Assembly (NCBI GenBank): GCA_022843805.1
Contig: JALHMY010000037.1
Span: 18,011-82,010, forward strand
Origin: Fuerstiella sp.
GTDB taxonomy: Bacteria > Planctomycetota > Planctomycetia > Planctomycetales > Planctomycetaceae
Direction: 5' to 3'
Length of the DNA stretch: 64,000 nt
In this document: positions 34,494 to 44,330 of the stretch, in pieces
Layout of the letters: every line of letters begins with the position of its first letter
Position numbering within the stretch: position 1 is the stretch's first letter
Notes under the pieces: model-generated
Told to the model about the DNA's origin: nothing
Seen by the model: only the letters and a program-made list of their open reading frames with translations
The model's database searches: none
Translations under genes and position numbers: made by a program

Positions 34494-34605
34494 CTGACAT
34501 CGCCTCACTGGTGCTGGATGGTGTCCGAAGTTGAAGGGCATGAATAACGGCATTGCGCTGCTATGCGCGATGTTGGATGGTATACTGAGGGAAAGGACAC
34601 AAACA

Positions 34606-34921
34606 ATGATCGAGATCAGATACACTGGCGACGCGCTTTGGCAAAGGATTGAACGTGCTGTGGAAAAAGTGAAGGACCGATTACGATGCGTCACCCGTGC
34701 TTTGAATGCCGCGAATATCCCCTACGCAGTGATTGGCGGAAACGCGGTTCAGCACTGGGTGGCTCAGGTCGGCGAATCGGTCGTCAGGAATACCCGTGAC
34801 GTCGATATTATCCTCAATGAATCTGATTTGGATCGGGCTGCTGGATGAAAGCTGGCTCGAAAGGCTTTCACCAGAACTGCGGCTGCGAATGGAGGAATTG
34901 TTAAACGATCCTGACGGGTAG
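34606..34921 (+). pseudogene. Internally deleted nucleotidyltransferase-family gene
   Basis: N-terminal MIEIRYTGDALWQRIERAVEKVKDRLRCVTRALNAANIPYAVIGGNAVQHWVAQVGESVVRNTRDVDIILNESDLDRAAG* followed in the +1 frame by GLLDESWLERLSPELRLRMEELLNDPDG*, a typical C-terminus of the same family. Confidence 0.7.
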
Positions 34922-34991: not shown

Positions 34992-37900
34992 TTATCTGTA
35001 TTCGTTCCGGGCAACGAGATTCTCATGCAGAAGGAGAGATAAAGGGCCCTCAGCAGCCAGGACTGCCATCACTTGATCGATCCTGTATTGATTCTGATCG
35101 TCAGCGATTTCGCTGATGTCCGGCAGGTCGCTGACATCCGCTGAGCCGCTGTTGTCGATCGTCGAAGTCGAAGGTGCACCTGGCTCGGATCGCCCTGTAC
35201 GTGGGCCACTGTTGGGTGGCTTCGTTTCACCGGATGTCAGAATCAATGCGTTAAACGAGTTGGAGATATTTTCTTCGTCAAACGAATCCGGTCCTGCAAC
35301 GGCTGGCTGCATCGGCACGTTCAGAAAGTCTGCATCAGCAACAACGATATCGCGGGCGATGCTCCATGGACTCATCTCTCCGGTGGAGCTTACGGCTCTT
35401 AGCCAGACTCGGTAAGTTCCTGTCGGCAATGGTGTGGAAGGCATGAAGGATGTTCCCGTGAGTTGCGTGTTCCGGAGATAGCCGGATTGAATTCCCACTC
35501 GATCGATCCACAGTTCATATCGAACAGCTCCCTCTGTCGTTGACCATGTGATGGTCGGCTGGCCCATTGAACTTCCGGAAGTCACAGTCACCGTCGGCCG
35601 ACCGCCGACGAAAAGCGGCTGCGGTGTCGACCAGAGGCTGCGCATTCCGGAGGAGCTCTGGGCCAGCACCTGCCAGCGGTAAGAGCCATCTGCAAGACTG
35701 GCTGGAGGAGTCCAGCTGGTTGTGGTCAGACCAGTTTGAGTTGTCACGACTCCATTCACTTCATTGACCAGCCGCACTTCATAAGTCTGCGCACCTGCAA
35801 CGCCGGTCCAGGTGAAGGTCGGGCGGCGGTTAAAAGTTGCGGAAGTCGGGCCAGTGACTGCAGGCGGAGCAACGATCAGGATTTCGGTCATGTTCAGCCA
35901 TGGTGTCGTAACGCCGCCTGCGTCACGCCCGCGAACCCAGATTCGATAAGTACCCATCGGCCAGTCTGTTGCTGCTGTCCACGCAGTCTGTGTCCATGCG
36001 GATTCGTACACAAACTTCTGCTGGCCTGTTGTGAGATTGTCGATCCAGAGTTCATAGCTCTGTGCACCTGGTAACGCGGCCCATTGAATGGCTGGGGTTG
36101 CGTCTCCATAGAATCGATCCATAGGCTGGACTGCAACAGGCGCACCGATCATAACATTGTATTGCGGGCTCCACTCGGAGCGCACGCCGTTTACATCCAC
36201 GCTTCTTCGCCAGACCGCATAGCGGCCAATGTCAAACGGTGTTGACGGCGTCCAGGAGTTCGTTGAGGCTGTTTCCTGCCGCCAGGGATTGACGCCGGTC
36301 GTCAAATTCGCGAACCAGAGTTCGTAAGATACGGCTCCCTGTGCTGGCGCCCACTGGAATGTTGGAGTTAGCGTATTTGCGGATGCTCCGGGTGCAGTAA
36401 AGCCGGACGGCAGGTTGAACCATGTTGTTGTGTCAGGCTGGTTCGGCAGAGGTTCTTCGTTACCCACCTGATCCACGGCAACACTGTAGAACTGATAGGT
36501 TCTGCCATGACGGCCGGTGAATACGGCAGAGGCCGCTGTTGTCTGGCTTTGCCAGATCGTGAATGGTCCGCCGTTCTCCGACACATAAACATTGTACGCG
36601 GCGATCCCGGAACCTGCCCCATCAGTTCCCGACCACGTGACATTATATGCAGGCGTGGTGACAGGATAAGGCAGCGCGGTCACACTGCTCGATGGGCGAT
36701 TCAGGTCGACTGTATTGAGCCAGGTATTGGTCACAATCGGGGCCTCTGTATCAAAGACAATTGAGGCCTGTCCTGTGTATTCGGTGCCACTGACAGCGCT
36801 GGATTTCGGGGCAATAGTGTACGAGACAAATCCCTGGCCACGGCCCGTCGCATCATCAGGCAGAAGGAAGCCGGCGAGTCCATCCCATGGGAGGTCGAAA
36901 GTCACGGGATCCAGAGATCGGAAGGTCCAGCTCAGCTGGCCAGTCGCCGAGTTAAACAGTGCAGTGACTTCAACGACAAGGCCGCTTGCCGGATCAGAGA
37001 CGCGTCCTGTCCATGACTTTAGTCCTGCGGGGACGTTCATCACGACCTCGCCCCAGCCGAATTGATTCAATTCGAACGAATCCCAGTTGAGATCCGTATC
37101 CAGCTGCTGCGTGACGAACACTTCCTGAGCGGGAGCTGCGGCTGTGGGCACATTCTGGAAGTAGATCGTGTAAGGGAAAAGTGAGGGCGTTGTCAGGAAT
37201 CCCGCAGCGCCTGTTCCGGCGGGCCCGACGATCTCGTTCGGGTCACCGGGAGTCCTCTGTTCGCTGGTCTCAAGGTCCCTTTCGCCCTGTTTGCAAAGAG
37301 AAAGGTAATACAGAACAAGATCAATGGAAGGCTCCTCTCCGGGATTGTCGAGCCTCCATGTATCGATCAGAGTCTTCAGGCATGGATGCAGTCCCGAAAT
37401 CCTGTCGATCTGCTCTCTGGTAATATTCACTGGTTCGGAATCAGAGTTTTCAGTTGCGATGATTACCCCTATCATGGGGCCTAAAAGAGCTCTGCCGTTT
37501 AGGATCGCCTGACGAGTTGCGGCCATAACGCCCTGAGCAATGGGCGGACCTATTTCAGCAAGTAACTCGGCACTCGCGATAAAAGTGTCGACGGCAACCA
37601 ATCCTTCGCCGACGGGACCAAGTGACGATCCGACGATTACCTTTCCGCCCTGCTTTGTTACGAGGGTCCTTAGTTTACGTTTCACATCCCCCTGCAGAAC
37701 AACCTTTAGTATTGGTTTGAGCGGATCAACTGCTCCTTCGCCTGTAAGGCCGGAAGGGTCGATTGTTGTAACCGGCGCATTATCTGCATACCGATAAAGA
37801 TTGACATCGCCGCCCTGAAATCCGATGGGATCAGGCTGAGTGAATCGGCCCGCTGCGGAATCATATAGTCGTGCTCGCATGTCGAATCCGGTGGTCCCGC

Positions 37901-40900
37901 GCTGCGAGACGCCCCACTGACCGTTGAATGTGTAACGATTCGTCGAAACGGCCGTACCAGTGGCCGACAGAATCTCCCCGAACGGCAGATACCGATAACT
38001 GGCCGAGACACTGCCATCCTCTGCCGTCAGTGCTGTCGTATTGCCGGTCATATCGAAATGATAGTAGCTTTGAGTACCCGTGTTCGAAAATCTGGCTTCG
38101 AGGCCGGTGCCAGTTACATACGATGCGGTCTGATTGCCGCTCACGTATTCCGCCAGCACATCGTTGAGACCATCGACTCCGCCCAGTGCGTCCATCAGAA
38201 GTTCGGTTCGCGTTCCGTTCAGTGTCACGGCCGATCGATGGCCCAGCGGGTCGTATTCAAACTGCCAGATGTTGCTTCCATCAGTGATGGTGGCCAGCCG
38301 ATTTCTGCCGTCATAGGAATACTGCAGGCTGCTGCCGTCAGTCCTGACCATCGAGATCAGATTGCCATCCGCGTCGTATTCAAACTGCTCGCCGTTCGGT
38401 CCGGTCTGGTACTGATTCAGCGAGTTTGTCGAATATCCCGCTCGATTACCGACCGCATCGGTGTCATAGCGGTGAATTGTAGTGTCCGGAAGTGTGACGG
38501 CGATCAGCTGTCCCTCGGGATCATACTCCCAGGAGGTGAGACCTGCAGCATCGGTCATCGAGATTGGTCGATTGTACGAGTCATACACATAGTCATTGAA
38601 ACCAATCACTGCCGATGTGTTGTCACGGTGTTCAATGCGAGTGAGCTGACTGAAGCTGTTGTACGTGTAAAGCGTCGATGCACCGTTACTGAATGTCCTG
38701 GACGCCAGTTGTCCGGTTGTGTTGTAAGTGTAGGTGACCTGTAAACTGCCGTTGCGGCTGACGGTTGACAGATTCCCGATGCTGTCGAATGTGTATTCGA
38801 TGGTAAGTCCATCAGAGGTGCTGATTTGATCCGGTCGGCCGCCTGCATCGTAACGGTAGTTGACAAAGCGACCGTTCGGATACGTGATTCGAGTGATTCG
38901 ATCGGTCGCATCGTAGGTGAATGTGACTGTACCTGTGGATCCATCGCTGCTGGTTTCCACGAGTTGTATCAGATTGCGACGAGCGTCGTATGTGTAATCC
39001 TGCCGTGAGCCATCGGAGAACTCGCGACGAGTGATCAGGTTGCTGTTGTTGACAGTGTCGAGTGTCCAGCGGCTGCCTTCGGTCTTCTGCAGAAGTCGAT
39101 TGCCACGGGAGTCGTAACCATAAAGCTTGTAGCCGCCATCCGGATTCACCAGACTCGTCAAAAGGCCCTGGCTGTTTCGAAAGAAGTCCGTAAAACGCCC
39201 GATGGCATCGGTGATTCCCTCAGAGAACACACCGGAAGAATCATAGTCGATGTCTGTATCATGGCCACTGGGCGATGTCAGGCGAGTAATGTTTCCGGAC
39301 GCATCCCGCACGAGTGATATGCGAGAGATTCCCTGTCTTACTCCGGTGAGCCGGCCAGCGTCATCAAACCGAAGATCGGCTGTCTGCCCATTGGATTCTG
39401 TCAATTCCGTGGCCTGACCGAATTCACCTTCCAGCCATGAAATGGAGCGTCCGGATGCATCGGTGACAGTGACTCGGCCGAGATGTGACGGGCCGCCATA
39501 GGTGTAACTGACTGCCTGCAGATTGTTGGCCAGCGAGGATTGCCGGAGACGGCCGACTGAGTCATAAACGAAGTTCGAACGCACGCCATCGATTCCGATA
39601 ACACCGGAAATTGTCCACGCTTTCGGTCCGGTTGTGTCATTGTTCCATTCGTATGTGACAACGCCGGCGGACGAGGTAACTGACGTCAGTCTTTGCTGAG
39701 CGTCATAAGCAAAAGTTGTGACTCGGCCCACAGGATCAGTAGTAGAAACGATTCGTCCGTTCGCGTTGTACGTAAATGTTGTCACATCGCCGAAGTGATC
39801 GGTCAGGGTCGTCAGTCGTCCGGCGGTATAACCGGCGGTGACGCGAACTCCCAGACGGGATTCGGTGTAATCCCATTTTCCATCGGCTGAGTAAGCCGTG
39901 ATTGTTCCGTCGGCTTCGGTCAGGATGTATCCCCCGCCACTGCGATTCGACAGCTGCCCGCGATCTGCACCATATCCGATAAAACTGCTGCCCGATCGCC
40001 GGAATGACCGAATCGAAAACCCGGTGATCAGGTCGACGTTACCATCAGCGTCAGTTACGGCGCGGAGATCCAGAGGGTTTTCAGTGCCTCGTCCGTATGC
40101 CGTCAACTCGAATCTCTGATGAATCAGCCCAAATCGGTTGGCCTGCTGAATCAGGTAGGCCATCGTTCGAGACAGGTTCAAAGTCGAAAGGCCGTCCTGG
40201 GCCAGAACTGCGGCCGCGCTGCGAATGGCGTTGCTCCAGCTTTGCAGCGTGTTGCCAACAAGAGCTGACAGTGCTGGTCGGACGGCGTTTGTCCATGCTT
40301 CAGCAGAAATGAAATCCGGACGGTAAACATCCAGCATGGCGGTTGTAAGGGGCAGCTGACTTTCCACTGGAAAGACCGCGCCTCCCGCTCCGATTCGTGA
40401 CTGAATCGATGTTTCCGCGATCGCGGCTGCTGCCACTCTGGTGAATACATGCAGACCGTTGGCTCGCGGCAGAACAAAGAGTCGCAGCGTTACAGTTTCT
40501 CCCGGCGCATAATTATCCGCACGGCCGCTCTCCTTAACTGCCAGCACGCTGGCAAAGTCTTCCGATGCCTCTGTTTCTCCCACAGGCAGAAATGCGCCAT
40601 TGTCGGTAATCAGCTGTATCACAGGAGCTGGCTGACTTCTGGTGCTGTTGTTTTTTACCGTTACCAGAACCGGGATGTTGCGGAATGGTCGAGTGATCTC
40701 AGGCATATTGACTTCGATCTGCCAGTTCGGCATCCTCGCCCATGCGTCAGCTGCTGATGTGCCGCCCGACACGACCGTAAAACTCTTTCCGGAGTACACG
40801 ACAGGCGCACCGCCATTGCTGGCAGAGATCTGGAATGGTCCGCCAATGCCCAGATTCGAGAATGTGATTGCCGCTGTGGTTGAGTCAACAAGAGTGACGC

Positions 40901-43900
40901 TGCTCGCGAGTTGAGTGCCAAGGCGGAACTGAGTGGCTGAGGTGAATCCGGTTCCTCGTACCGTCAGCGACAGAGCATCGGCAACCAGCAGCTGCGAACT
41001 GATCGACGCTTCGTTTTCGATGCCGAGGAGGCTCAGCGATAAGTTGTCTGCTCGAGTCACCGCGATGCCGGGAGCTCGGCTGATCACGGAAACGTAGTAT
41101 GTTCCGGCAACGGGTTCATCCATCGTGACGCGGGCAATGCGATTTCCGCCTTCGACAATGGCGGACGCTACATAGGGGTCATCAGATCCACCGGTCGGCA
41201 GGCTGTCGCGTCGAATTCGAATTTCCCCGGCATCGTCTGCCAGAAATGTTGTCATCACCTGAATCGTCGTCGCACCGGTGGGTATGGTTAGTGCATAGTA
41301 TACCGGCTCGCTGGTCGGAGCGTTGCTGTTAACGTTCACTCCAAACGGCAGGGCTTCTGCAGCAATCTGAATGGTGGAGGATGCAGGACGAGTATTGTTG
41401 GATCGATTCAGGTCCAGCACGACTCCGGCGGCATCAGCAGCAGGAATCACGAACCAGCGGCCCGGACGATTCGGTGCTGTGACAGTCTCCGTAATCGTGA
41501 TGCTGCCAAAAGCCGACAGCGATGTTGTGGGGGCTGATCGCTTCAGCGGCAGATCGTGCAGATCGAGAATAGAGTTCTCAGAAAGAAACAGCAAATCTGT
41601 CCATGGGCCGCTGATAGTGCGATCCGTCAGATTGCGAACGGTGTACTGAACCTGAAACGTCTGGCCAGGACTGAGCGGCCCCGATACGCCCAGCAACTGA
41701 ACGTTCTCGATCGTCAGGTCGGTGGCGATCGAAGAGAGTCCCAGAGTCACTGTGTTCGAGGTGACAGTCGCAGCCAGCCCGTTCACTTCGATGTCATCAA
41801 ACGTACCGTTGATTGCTGACGCCGTGACAACATCAAAGCGATCGGTCTCCAGCGGCTGAAAGCCGTTTTCCAGTCCTGTGATCAGTGCTCCTTCAAGTGT
41901 TGTCGTACTGGTAGTGCTGAGCCGCCCCATGTTCGTCGTTCCACCCACCAGAGTCGTCAGCGAACCTGTGGAACTTTGCGCAAACGCTCCATTGACGGTC
42001 AGTGTGCTGTTGCTGCCCAGTGTGATTTCCCCCTGATTTTCGAAGGCACCGCTGCGAGTCCAGTTGGCGCCTCCGGTCAGAGCGAAGTGTCCGCGGACAG
42101 TGGCCAGTTCTTCCAGTCCTGTGAACTGACTGCCTGCTCCGTCGAGGTGCAGTTCACCGCCGAGGGTTGTGAAGAATGAGCCGGCGGAAGGAAAGTCGAT
42201 GCGACTGCCGTCGATGATATGCCAGTCACCCGCCAGCGTCGTCACTCCTGATCCATGCGCCGTTTCTCCACGCGGGGCACTGATCGTGAGGAATGCTGCG
42301 TTATCCATCGAGACAACGCCCTGGTTCTCGAAGCGAGTCTGAATCCAGGCGCCGCCTCCGTCCATTCGCACCAGTCCCTGGTTCACGAACAGCGGCGACT
42401 GGCTCACCTGCACACCTCCGTTGAACACGCCAGGAACCTGGCTTCCGTCCTCCAGAGTGACTGTGCCGCTGGGGCGATTGATCAGTGTGCCCCGTCCCTG
42501 GAAGAGCTGGTTCAGCTGAAGCTGAGTTCCGCTCTGAACGGTCAGAGTCCCTTCATTGATAAGTTCACCCCACATATGTCGTGATCCTGCAGCGGGACCA
42601 ATCCTCAAATCCCCCTCGTTCACGAGACGGCCGAAGTTCGTGCCCGCATCCCAGATGGCCATTCCCGTCGGGAAATCAATGACCGCATTGTCCCACCAGT
42701 TGCCACCCAGCCGGATCGTACCGCCACCTTCTGCGGTATAGCGCCCTGAGTAGCGGGGAGAACCGGTGGCTGCACTGCCATTGGACAGGTCGAGTGTTGC
42801 GCCAGGAGACACAACAAAGTGTCCGCCTTTGCTGAAGCTCTGCTCAGAGGGTGTAGAAGACCAGTGACGGAGGCCCGAAAAATCGAGTGTCCCGGCAGTC
42901 ACTTCGATGCGACCTTCCGGTGAGTTCTGCAATAACAGTCCGTCCCAATACGCAGATGCCCCCGGAGTATTTGAAATCAGTGTACCGCTGTTGAACAGGT
43001 ACGAAGGTCCAACTCCATTGATCCAGGCCGAAGGAATATTTGCATTCACGGAACTCAGGAACGTTACTGTTCCGCCCGTTCGGTTGTCGATGGCAGAACC
43101 CTGTAAGCCGAACCCGCTGCCAGCAGAGGATGTATCAATGACGATGCTGCCCTGATTGTGAATCGTGGCTGCTGACATGACGGCTGAAGTGTGTTCGGCA
43201 GGCTCAAACTTCACCACACCCGTGTTAACGAACGGATTGAAGGTGTAGGAGGTAAACTGACCCGGTGTACCGATTCTTCCCCGCACGACTTTGAGTTCAG
43301 AGAGATTGAAGACACCGCTGCCGGCAATCTGCGTACTGCTGCCGTTACCCGAAAGAGCTTCCAGACGCAGCGTTGTGGCCACAGAGTTGAGAGTATGGCC
43401 ATTGGGGTACATGACTCCCGCGATATGACGCCATTCACCACCTCCCGTCAGCAGAATGTCATCAAGGATCTGCACCGAAGCGGATGTTTGAAGTGAAGCC
43501 GATGGACTGACTTCGATGTCGCCCAGAAGGTCCTGCTGAGTGCCACCGAGGTTGAGGGTGCCGCCATCGATTTCAATTCGACTCCCGGTTTGTGATTGAA
43601 TGCGGGACGAAATGGTCGCGTTGATTCCAGTGCCAGTCTTGCGGATCACTCCATGGTTCACCAAAACAGGCTGGCCCCAGTCCGATCGGATTGCGCTGTC
43701 ATTGATCAGCTCAATGACCCCCGTGGCGCTATTGGTGATCGCTCCGGTTGCCACAATCGGCCAGCTTGTGATGAAAGGACCATTCTGCAGTCTGAACGTA
43801 CCGTTGTTTGTGAGGGAGCCCCAGAGACGAGGAGCACCATCGCCCACGGAATTGACTCCGACGGGCACATCAATATTGAGCGTTCCATTGTTGATGAATC

Positions 43901-44330
43901 CGCCCAGCAACAAGCCTCCCTCGATCGTTCCTCCGTTAATGGTGAGAGTTGAGACGCTGGTGTTGAGTTGCAGGTTGGGGGCAGTGGATTCCCAGTTCAG
44001 TGTGCCGATCGTGAGGTTGGCGTTCAGACTCAGGCTCGGTCCGCCTGCAATGATGGCTGTGTCATCAGCATCCGGGAAACCCTGATTGGTTGCACCCAGA
44101 TCAACGTTCATCCAGTTTCGAGCATCCTGCCAGACATTCGATGCGAATCCTCCCTGCCACGAATAAGTGGCCAGCACAATACGTTCTTCCAGGGACTCAG
44201 CAGCCGGTCGCCGGTCCCGGGAAGAACGCTTTCTTCGAAGTGCGGAGCTGCTGCGGTGGGTAGAAGGCCCGTTCGCCCGTCCGTTGGCTTCAAAGATTTG
44301 TCGTGCTTTCCTGATGAACGCCTGAATCAT
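34992..44330 (-). CDS. Giant (3112 aa) surface protein: adhesin-like repeats, CARDB-like domain, RHS/YD repeats with RHS core, C-terminal FN3-like repeats
   Basis: N-terminal ESLEERIVLATYSWQGG; many NxGTLxxxx repeats; YTVRNLTDRTISGPW; YD repeats (YTYNTTGQLASRTFSNGASTLYTYN); core YRYLPFGEILSATGTAVSTNRYTFNGQWG...DMRARLYDSAAGRFTQPDPIGFQGGDVNLYRYADNAP; repeated TPxFxWxxxxGAxxYELWIDNLTTG units. Confidence 0.93.
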   Translation of the reverse strand: MIQAFIRKARQIFEANGRANGPSTHRSSSALRRKRSSRDRRPAAESLEERIVLATYSWQGGFASNVWQDARNWMNVDLGATNQGFPDADDTAIIAGGPSLSLNANLTIGTLNWESTAPNLQLNTSVSTLTINGGTIEGGLLLGGFINNGTLNIDVPVGVNSVGDGAPRLWGSLTNNGTFRLQNGPFITSWPIVATGAITNSATGVIELINDSAIRSDWGQPVLVNHGVIRKTGTGINATISSRIQSQTGSRIEIDGGTLNLGGTQQDLLGDIEVSPSASLQTSASVQILDDILLTGGGEWRHIAGVMYPNGHTLNSVATTLRLEALSGNGSSTQIAGSGVFNLSELKVVRGRIGTPGQFTSYTFNPFVNTGVVKFEPAEHTSAVMSAATIHNQGSIVIDTSSAGSGFGLQGSAIDNRTGGTVTFLSSVNANIPSAWINGVGPSYLFNSGTLISNTPGASAYWDGLLLQNSPEGRIEVTAGTLDFSGLRHWSSTPSEQSFSKGGHFVVSPGATLDLSNGSAATGSPRYSGRYTAEGGGTIRLGGNWWDNAVIDFPTGMAIWDAGTNFGRLVNEGDLRIGPAAGSRHMWGELINEGTLTVQSGTQLQLNQLFQGRGTLINRPSGTVTLEDGSQVPGVFNGGVQVSQSPLFVNQGLVRMDGGGAWIQTRFENQGVVSMDNAAFLTISAPRGETAHGSGVTTLAGDWHIIDGSRIDFPSAGSFFTTLGGELHLDGAGSQFTGLEELATVRGHFALTGGANWTRSGAFENQGEITLGSNSTLTVNGAFAQSSTGSLTTLVGGTTNMGRLSTTSTTTLEGALITGLENGFQPLETDRFDVVTASAINGTFDDIEVNGLAATVTSNTVTLGLSSIATDLTIENVQLLGVSGPLSPGQTFQVQYTVRNLTDRTISGPWTDLLFLSENSILDLHDLPLKRSAPTTSLSAFGSITITETVTAPNRPGRWFVIPAADAAGVVLDLNRSNNTRPASSTIQIAAEALPFGVNVNSNAPTSEPVYYALTIPTGATTIQVMTTFLADDAGEIRIRRDSLPTGGSDDPYVASAIVEGGNRIARVTMDEPVAGTYYVSVISRAPGIAVTRADNLSLSLLGIENEASISSQLLVADALSLTVRGTGFTSATQFRLGTQLASSVTLVDSTTAAITFSNLGIGGPFQISASNGGAPVVYSGKSFTVVSGGTSAADAWARMPNWQIEVNMPEITRPFRNIPVLVTVKNNSTRSQPAPVIQLITDNGAFLPVGETEASEDFASVLAVKESGRADNYAPGETVTLRLFVLPRANGLHVFTRVAAAAIAETSIQSRIGAGGAVFPVESQLPLTTAMLDVYRPDFISAEAWTNAVRPALSALVGNTLQSWSNAIRSAAAVLAQDGLSTLNLSRTMAYLIQQANRFGLIHQRFELTAYGRGTENPLDLRAVTDADGNVDLITGFSIRSFRRSGSSFIGYGADRGQLSNRSGGGYILTEADGTITAYSADGKWDYTESRLGVRVTAGYTAGRLTTLTDHFGDVTTFTYNANGRIVSTTDPVGRVTTFAYDAQQRLTSVTSSAGVVTYEWNNDTTGPKAWTISGVIGIDGVRSNFVYDSVGRLRQSSLANNLQAVSYTYGGPSHLGRVTVTDASGRSISWLEGEFGQATELTESNGQTADLRFDDAGRLTGVRQGISRISLVRDASGNITRLTSPSGHDTDIDYDSSGVFSEGITDAIGRFTDFFRNSQGLLTSLVNPDGGYKLYGYDSRGNRLLQKTEGSRWTLDTVNNSNLITRREFSDGSRQDYTYDARRNLIQLVETSSDGSTGTVTFTYDATDRITRITYPNGRFVNYRYDAGGRPDQISTSDGLTIEYTFDSIGNLSTVSRNGSLQVTYTYNTTGQLASRTFSNGASTLYTYNSFSQLTRIEHRDNTSAVIGFNDYVYDSYNRPISMTDAAGLTSWEYDPEGQLIAVTLPDTTIHRYDTDAVGNRAGYSTNSLNQYQTGPNGEQFEYDADGNLISMVRTDGSSLQYSYDGRNRLATITDGSNIWQFEYDPLGHRSAVTLNGTRTELLMDALGGVDGLNDVLAEYVSGNQTASYVTGTGLEARFSNTGTQSYYHFDMTGNTTALTAEDGSVSASYRYLPFGEILSATGTAVSTNRYTFNGQWGVSQRGTTGFDMRARLYDSAAGRFTQPDPIGFQGGDVNLYRYADNAPVTTIDPSGLTGEGAVDPLKPILKVVLQGDVKRKLRTLVTKQGGKVIVGSSLGPVGEGLVAVDTFIASAELLAEIGPPIAQGVMAATRQAILNGRALLGPMIGVIIATENSDSEPVNITREQIDRISGLHPCLKTLIDTWRLDNPGEEPSIDLVLYYLSLCKQGERDLETSEQRTPGDPNEIVGPAGTGAAGFLTTPSLFPYTIYFQNVPTAAAPAQEVFVTQQLDTDLNWDSFELNQFGWGEVVMNVPAGLKSWTGRVSDPASGLVVEVTALFNSATGQLSWTFRSLDPVTFDLPWDGLAGFLLPDDATGRGQGFVSYTIAPKSSAVSGTEYTGQASIVFDTEAPIVTNTWLNTVDLNRPSSSVTALPYPVTTPAYNVTWSGTDGAGSGIAAYNVYVSENGGPFTIWQSQTTAASAVFTGRHGRTYQFYSVAVDQVGNEEPLPNQPDTTTWFNLPSGFTAPGASANTLTPTFQWAPAQGAVSYELWFANLTTGVNPWRQETASTNSWTPSTPFDIGRYAVWRRSVDVNGVRSEWSPQYNVMIGAPVAVQPMDRFYGDATPAIQWAALPGAQSYELWIDNLTTGQQKFVYESAWTQTAWTAATDWPMGTYRIWVRGRDAGGVTTPWLNMTEILIVAPPAVTGPTSATFNRRPTFTWTGVAGAQTYEVRLVNEVNGVVTTQTGLTTTSWTPPASLADGSYRWQVLAQSSSGMRSLWSTPQPLFVGGRPTVTVTSGSSMGQPTITWSTTEGAVRYELWIDRVGIQSGYLRNTQLTGTSFMPSTPLPTGTYRVWLRAVSSTGEMSPWSIARDIVVADADFLNVPMQPAVAGPDSFDEENISNSFNALILTSGETKPPNSGPRTGRSEPGAPSTSTIDNSGSADVSDLPDISEIADDQNQYRIDQVMAVLAAEGPLSLLLHENLVARNEYR

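What the first reader, a model, noticed from the sequence alone, without database searches (positions are those of the whole stretch)
34992..44330. RHS giant with an internal RHS core and FN3-like tail instead of a C-terminal toxin
In polymorphic toxins the RHS core (here ...RLYDSAAGRFTQPDPIGFQGGDVNLYRYADNAP) directly precedes a short variable C-terminal toxin. Here the core (near 37800-37900) is followed by about 930 more residues: a helical segment (VDPLKPILKVVLQGDVKRKLRTLVTKQGG...LYYLSLCKQGERD), a DPNEIVGPAGTG beta domain and several FN3-like TPxFxWxxxxGAxxYELWI repeats. The N-terminus adds a long stretch of NxGTL adhesin-type repeats and a CARDB-like domain. This may be a non-toxic surface adhesin that uses the RHS shell, or carry its cargo inside the shell in the helical segment. 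No immunity-like gene is adjacent.
Basis: partly seen in the sequence, partly recalled or inferred. Interest (0 to 1): 0.6.

Follow-up and report, generated by a model that had tools for sequence, protein, structure and literature searches.

The report
RHS surface giant with swappable cargo
A planctomycete-like bacterium encodes a giant surface protein whose RHS shell is followed by a short swapped-out segment in the usual toxin position and then by a conserved adhesive tail, an arrangement found in several bacterial phyla that suggests a cargo slot built into a surface protein rather than a simple toxin or a simple adhesin.

Summary
The 3112-aa gene at 34992-44330 (-) is real and has the described layout. 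The post-core region is two things. Residues 2363-3000 are conserved structure: DUF7619, then FN3-like repeats. Residues 2196-~2310, directly after the core's DPSGL, form a cassette unrelated to the one in the same-genus ortholog. The flanks there are mostly 84-93% identical, and DNA similarity stops at 37787 and resumes at 37293. Forty-seven distinct proteins from planctomycetes, cyanobacteria, proteobacteria and others share the order RHS core, cassette (62-307 aa), DUF7619. Cassettes are mostly unrelated, yet one is shared between a planctomycete and a cyanobacterium, so at least some displacement occurred. P0001 keeps the full Arg-Asp-Asp autoprotease triad (41 of 46 members do). No cassette hits a toxin family, and immunity-like genes are rarer than beside ordinary RHS tips. 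Best reading: a surface contact protein with SGS1/teneurin-like topology. The cassette would sit in the shell, the tail outside, with a predicted cut after L2195. The cassette is cargo or filler, not a recognised toxin. Enclosure is inferred; the structure model left the cassette unresolved. New variant of a known kind.

The parts
34992..44330 (-). Whole gene P0001, 3112 aa, 331.6 kDa
44166..44330 (-). aa 1-55: basic N-terminus ending SLEERIVLA; similar LEER/LEDR/LETR-xxLLA motifs start other giants of this family
   Evidence: sequence
41811..44153 (-). aa 60-840: NxGTL-type adhesin-like repeat region
   Evidence: 14 motif copies vs 2.1 in shuffles
41361..41726 (-). aa 869-990: CARDB-like domain (by eye only)
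   Evidence: sequence; no Pfam hit
41085..41300 (-). aa 1011-1082: PPC-like domain (weak)
   Evidence: PF04151 E 0.0015, below cut-off
37746..40100 (-). aa 1411-2195: RHS/YD shell
   Evidence: PF05593, TIGR01643; AF2 pLDDT mostly 80-97; Foldseek E ~1e-47 to Rhs cocoons
37746..37991 (-). aa 2114-2195: RHS-associated core, aspartyl autoprotease with R2154 (37869-37871), D2167 (37830-37832), D2191 (37758-37760)
   Evidence: TIGR03696 E 7e-20; triad spacing 13 and 24 as in BiTLP R2103/D2116/D2140
37401..37745 (-). aa 2196-2310: hypervariable cassette directly after DPSGL; predicted autocleavage between L2195 and T2196
   Evidence: not homologous to the cassette of the G011 ortholog; no relatives in 170 genomes
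37245..37400 (-). aa 2311-2362: helical hinge HPCLKTL...DLETSEQRTP, with the protein's only two cysteines (C2317, C2346)
   Evidence: 63% identical in G011; cysteines; helices pLDDT 50-70
36711..37244 (-). aa 2363-2540: DUF7619 domain
   Evidence: PF24595 E 5.7e-16; 93% identical in G011
35331..36710 (-). aa 2541-3000: FN3-like repeats
   Evidence: motifs; Big_13 E 3.7e-4; phage tail-fibre J profile E 1.6e-6
34992..35330 (-). aa 3001-3112: low-complexity C-tail, not conserved
   Evidence: 26% identical to G011; DNA similarity ends at 35335

Best explanation
P0001 is a secreted, surface-displayed contact protein built on an RHS shell, with the topology of the mosquito protein SGS1 and of animal teneurins rather than of ordinary bacterial Rhs toxins. 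SHOWN: adhesin-like N-terminal repeats; an RHS shell with a complete autoprotease triad; a cassette of about 115 (at most 167) residues immediately after the cleavage motif that differs completely from the one in the close ortholog; then a conserved DUF7619 and FN3-like tail. SHOWN FOR THE FAMILY: the cassette slot is hypervariable, and in at least one case the same cassette sits in distant backbones while close backbones carry unrelated ones. INFERRED: the cassette lies inside the shell (12-18 kDa, the size of known enclosed domains), the chain leaves through the shell wall, and the 750-residue tail (81 kDa), too large for the cavity, lies outside and binds partners. INFERRED: the shell cuts itself after L2195, leaving a 98.7-kDa cassette-plus-tail fragment held by threading rather than covalently. 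In this member the cassette is cargo or filler without a recognisable toxin fold, which fits the missing immunity gene.
For: Ortholog G011: identity 84-93% upstream of the cassette apart from one 77% stretch (aa 1521-1800), 93% in DUF7619, but only 17-40% in gapped alignment over aa 2196-2310; cassette similarity is no better than shuffled (SW 26 vs mean 32). DNA similarity of 81% (window 47556-37787) stops and resumes at 37293-35335. Unconstrained drift at the upstream synonymous divergence (0.53) reaches so low a score in 0-0.7% of simulations. Family: 47 distinct cassettes between RHS core and DUF7619, mean column identity 8%. L100 and L119 have RHS 73% and DUF 70% but unrelated cassettes (z 0.8); L044 and L119 share one (z 13.7) at RHS 51%, DUF 49%. 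Triad in 41 of 46. Sizes; 42 of 47 cassettes are at most 200 aa. Precedents: SGS1 holds ~230 residues inside and exits by a mid-opening, shared with teneurins (PMC9935623); BiTLP cavity ~44,000 A3, C-terminal domains ~15 kDa (PMC13018210). Fold matches to Rhs cocoons, teneurin-like protein, teneurins and SGS1.
Against: Enclosure is not shown: cassette pLDDT is about 22-40, and TM-scores to known cocoons are at most 0.50 with rmsd 7-25 A or more, so the model does not establish a closed shell. In the solved bacterial teneurin-like protein there is no exit in the shell (PMC13018210). At the downstream synonymous divergence (0.87-1.23) drift alone could also erase the cassette (10-66% of simulations), so displacement in this pair is likely but not proven. 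Neither cassette of the pair has a known donor. Cleavage, secretion and surface location are untested.
Confidence: 0.5

Rival explanations
1. Pure structural adhesin: the RHS shell is only a scaffold, and the cassette is an unconstrained linker whose only job is to lead the chain from the core to DUF7619 outside, so it drifts, expands and is replaced without functional consequence.
For: No cassette of 47 matches a toxin family against at least 3 of 25 ordinary RHS tips of the same bacterial family (Fisher p 0.04). Immunity-like neighbours (ORF of at least 100 aa starting within 20 nt of the stop) 4/38 vs 8/22 (p 0.02). Cassettes have fewer His, Cys and Trp (3.3 vs 5.8 per 100) and some are plainly Pro- or Gly-rich linkers; L097 and L098 differ by expansion of a PTPTP stretch.
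Against: L044 and L119 share a specific cassette across phyla with a conserved NTDNC motif, which a filler would not keep. The autoprotease triad is kept in 41 of 46 members, whereas adhesive animal teneurins lack its last Asp (PMC9935623). Many cassettes have hydrophobic helices and normal complexity.
Confidence: 0.32
2. True polymorphic toxin with an unusual address: the cassette is a toxic effector released from the shell, and DUF7619-FN3 is a receptor-binding or pulling tail.
For: The cassette sits exactly at the toxin position after an intact DPSGL autoprotease motif, is hypervariable, and is swapped in at least one family case. Bacterial teneurin-like proteins of similar shell type carry ~15-kDa toxic C-terminal domains, one of them a hydrophobic membrane-permeabilising one (PMC13018210).
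Against: No toxin domain in 47 cassettes; no immunity gene here and few in the family; the toxic part would be released still joined to an 81-kDa tail unless a second cut occurs.
Confidence: 0.13
3. Gene fusion or decay product: an RHS toxin gene recently joined to, or read into, a DUF7619-FN3 giant, without a function of its own.
For: DUF7619 and FN3 tails also occur in giants without an RHS shell, e.g. L040 in the same genome. The C-tail and downstream DNA are not conserved with G011.
Against: The same order is found in 47 distinct proteins of several phyla, and in this gene both sides are conserved between two species.
Confidence: 0.05

Closest known systems
Bacterial teneurin-like proteins (TLP; BiTLP, PDB 9ifo/9pt5; PMC13018210)
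   Same: Adhesion modules at the N-terminus, RHS/YD shell, Arg-Asp-Asp triad with identical spacing (13 and 24), hypervariable segment right after DPxGL
   Different: TLPs end with the ~15-kDa domain, which stays wholly inside a shell without an exit, and nearly all have an immunity gene; P0001 continues for 750 residues after the cassette and has no immunity gene. FN-plug and NHL domains were not tested here
Mosquito SGS1 (PDB 8fjp; PMC9935623)
   Same: RHS shell with complete triad, a segment of ~230 residues inside, chain leaving the shell, further domains outside
   Different: SGS1 is an animal protein with beta-propellers and a lectin; its inner segment is a series of predicted membrane helices; no polymorphism of that segment is described in the passages read
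Animal teneurins
   Same: RHS shell, C-terminal chain leaves the shell and folds outside; adhesion role
   Different: Teneurins lack the last catalytic Asp and are not cleaved there; their outer domains are ABD and Tox-GHH, not DUF7619 and FN3
T6SS Rhs effectors (RhsA, Tse15, Tre23) and CDI/Rhs polymorphic toxins (PMC8765631)
   Same: RHS cocoon, PxxxxDPxGL core, C-terminal displacement logic
   Different: Toxin is the C-terminal end and an immunity gene is usual; no VgrG or PAAR part was recognised in P0001
DUF7619 proteins (PF24595; PMC12617251)
   Same: The DPN[DE]xxGPAG domain of surface proteins, related to DUF11; a predicted isopeptide-bond domain
   Different: By eye, the Lys near the domain start expected for the isopeptide bond is not seen in the planctomycete-type domain (not modelled)

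Membership tests
RHS/YD-shell proteins | RHS repeats plus RHS-associated core | tested here: met
RHS/YD-shell proteins | Arg-Asp-Asp autoprotease triad and DPxGL | tested here: met
   R2154, D2167, D2191, DPSGL
RHS/YD-shell proteins | Actual self-cleavage | not testable with these tools
   needs purified protein
Polymorphic RHS toxins | Toxin at the C-terminal end directly after the core | tested here: not met
   750 residues follow the cassette
Polymorphic RHS toxins | Variable domain after a conserved core, replaced between relatives | tested here: met
   P0001/G011 difference; family displacement
Polymorphic RHS toxins | Recognisable toxin domain | tested here: not met
   0 of 47 cassettes; none in P0001
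Polymorphic RHS toxins | Adjacent immunity gene | tested here: not met
   family 4/38 vs 8/22
Teneurin/SGS1-like topology | Chain leaves the shell and folds outside | tested here: inconclusive
   tail (81 kDa) too large for a ~44,000 A3 cavity, but the path is unresolved
Bacterial teneurin-like proteins | FN-plug, NHL and YD-shell superfold | not tested
   only the YD shell was compared
DUF7619 surface proteins | PF24595 match above cut-off | tested here: met
   59.2 bits, cut-off 27

The most novel reading that the evidence does not exclude
A widespread class of surface proteins in which a swappable effector is enclosed in the RHS shell while still tethered to an external DUF7619-FN3 tail, so that binding or pulling of the tail after self-cleavage draws the cassette out of the shell: a polymorphic cargo with a pull-ring.
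Probability: 0.12. Interest if true: 0.8.

Novelty: new variant of a known kind. Interest (0 to 1): 0.5.

Why it matters
Animal teneurins are thought to derive from bacterial RHS toxins, and the solved bacterial teneurin-like protein keeps its toxic end wholly inside. A broad bacterial family with a hypervariable cassette in the toxin slot, a retained autoprotease and a conserved adhesive tail would be a natural intermediate between toxin and adhesion receptor, and a concrete place to test how a chain leaves an RHS shell. It also cautions against annotating all RHS proteins as terminal-toxin systems.

Tried and rejected
Toxin search in the cassette with Pfam and NCBIfam: nothing. Relatives of the P0001 cassette in 170 genomes: only itself and the G011 hinge; the G011 cassette likewise, apart from two marginal hits. 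Relatives of the shared L044/L119 cassette: none in plasmids, viral contigs or 392 planctomycete genomes. Its AlphaFold2 model is poor (pLDDT 43) and has no significant fold match, so my impression of a permuted papain-like order of elements is not used. Considered and rejected: terminal toxin (the end is low-complexity and not conserved); T6SS effector (no VgrG or PAAR part recognised). Literature searches found no description of this architecture, but the library holds only open-licence papers.

Full report
CHECK. The gene (34992-44330, minus strand, 3112 aa) is one open frame in a 9.2-Mb genome. Domains in order: basic N-terminus ending SLEERIVLA, NxGTL-type repeats (14 copies, 2.1 expected), a CARDB-like stretch by eye, a weak PPC match, RHS shell with the associated core ending at aa 2195, a helical stretch, DUF7619, four FN3-like repeats and a low-complexity tail. 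The gene lies apart from its neighbours: a divergent Ser/Thr kinase upstream, and 800 bp without a same-strand gene downstream.

THE POST-CORE REGION IS TWO THINGS. One ortholog exists in the same genus (G011, L039). Upstream of the core's end the two proteins are mostly 84-93% identical (77% in aa 1521-1800). DUF7619 is 93% identical and the FN3-like repeats 68-84%. Between them, aa 2196-2310 show no similarity beyond chance. At DNA level, 81% identity runs from window 47556 to 37787, breaks, and resumes at 37293. The break falls at the DPSGL motif, where polymorphic toxins exchange their toxic ends. Synonymous divergence is 0.53 per site just upstream and 0.87-1.23 downstream. Simulated unconstrained drift reaches the observed dissimilarity in under 1% of runs at the upstream value, but in 10-66% at the downstream values. 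Replacement is therefore the more likely explanation for this pair, not a proven one.

THE FAMILY. Scanning genomes with the DUF7619 alignment and reading upstream gave 47 distinct proteins with the order RHS core, cassette, DUF7619, from planctomycetes, cyanobacteria, proteobacteria, Chloroflexi, Spirochaetales and others. Cassettes are 62-307 aa (median 156); 42 of 47 are at most 200 aa. Their forced alignment has 8% mean column identity. Two backbones that are 73% identical (L100, L119) carry unrelated cassettes (z 0.8), while L119 shares its cassette (z 13.7) with a planctomycete backbone only 51% identical (L044). That is displacement. Inheritance is also seen (L100 and L109 share a cassette), as is simple linker expansion (L097, L098).

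IS THE CASSETTE A TOXIN? Nothing supports it for P0001. None of 47 cassettes matches a toxin family, against at least 3 of 25 ordinary RHS tips from the same bacterial family (p 0.04). Immunity-like neighbours are rarer (4/38 vs 8/22, p 0.02). These controls are small, come from one bacterial family, and the neighbour test uses mechanical ORFs. On the other hand the autoprotease triad is intact: R2154, D2167 and D2191 have the same spacing as in BiTLP, and 41 of 46 members keep it. Adhesive teneurins lack the last Asp (PMC9935623).

STRUCTURE. AlphaFold2 (32-sequence alignment) gave a confident shell and DUF7619, but an unresolved cassette (pLDDT about 22-40) and modest confidence for the helical hinge. 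Foldseek finds Rhs effectors, the teneurin-like protein, teneurins, Tc toxins and SGS1. TM-scores are low, so the model does not show whether the cocoon closes or where the chain runs. The enclosure argument is one of size: cassette 12-18 kDa, tail 81 kDa, cavity about 44,000 A3 in BiTLP (PMC13018210). It also rests on precedent: SGS1 houses ~230 residues and lets the chain out through the wall (PMC9935623).

VERDICT. A surface RHS protein with a swappable internal segment and a conserved external tail, combining the polymorphism of RHS toxins with the topology expected from SGS1 and teneurins. I rate it a new variant of a known kind. The main uncertainty is whether the cassette does anything.

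Noticed in passing
window 34531-34848 (+): Short frame resembling part of a nucleotidyltransferase (NTP_transf_5, E 8e-4, below cut-off), probably a gene remnant, in the gap downstream of P0001.
   Followed up: partly
aa 2317 and 2346 (window 37245-37400): The only two cysteines of the 3112-residue protein lie in the helical hinge; the ortholog has Ala and Ile there.
   Followed up: partly
P0001 vs L039: Four-fold synonymous divergence rises along the gene from 0.42 to above 1.2, perhaps from recombination of the 3' half.
   Followed up: no
G000 contigs C35, C91, C141, C92 (L059, L060, L061, L064): Ordinary RHS proteins in the same genome have terminal variable tips with a same-strand immunity-like ORF directly behind, one ankyrin-like by eye.
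   Followed up: partly
L040, L041, L055, L069: DUF7619 giants without an RHS shell carry instead a related-looking helical domain of about 300 aa in front of DUF7619.
   Followed up: no
G031:C1: Two RHS-core frames of 12,114 and 12,618 codons.
   Followed up: no
L045 (aa ~590-940): An alpha/beta-hydrolase-like stretch (by eye) directly before DUF7619 in a giant without a detected RHS core.
   Followed up: no
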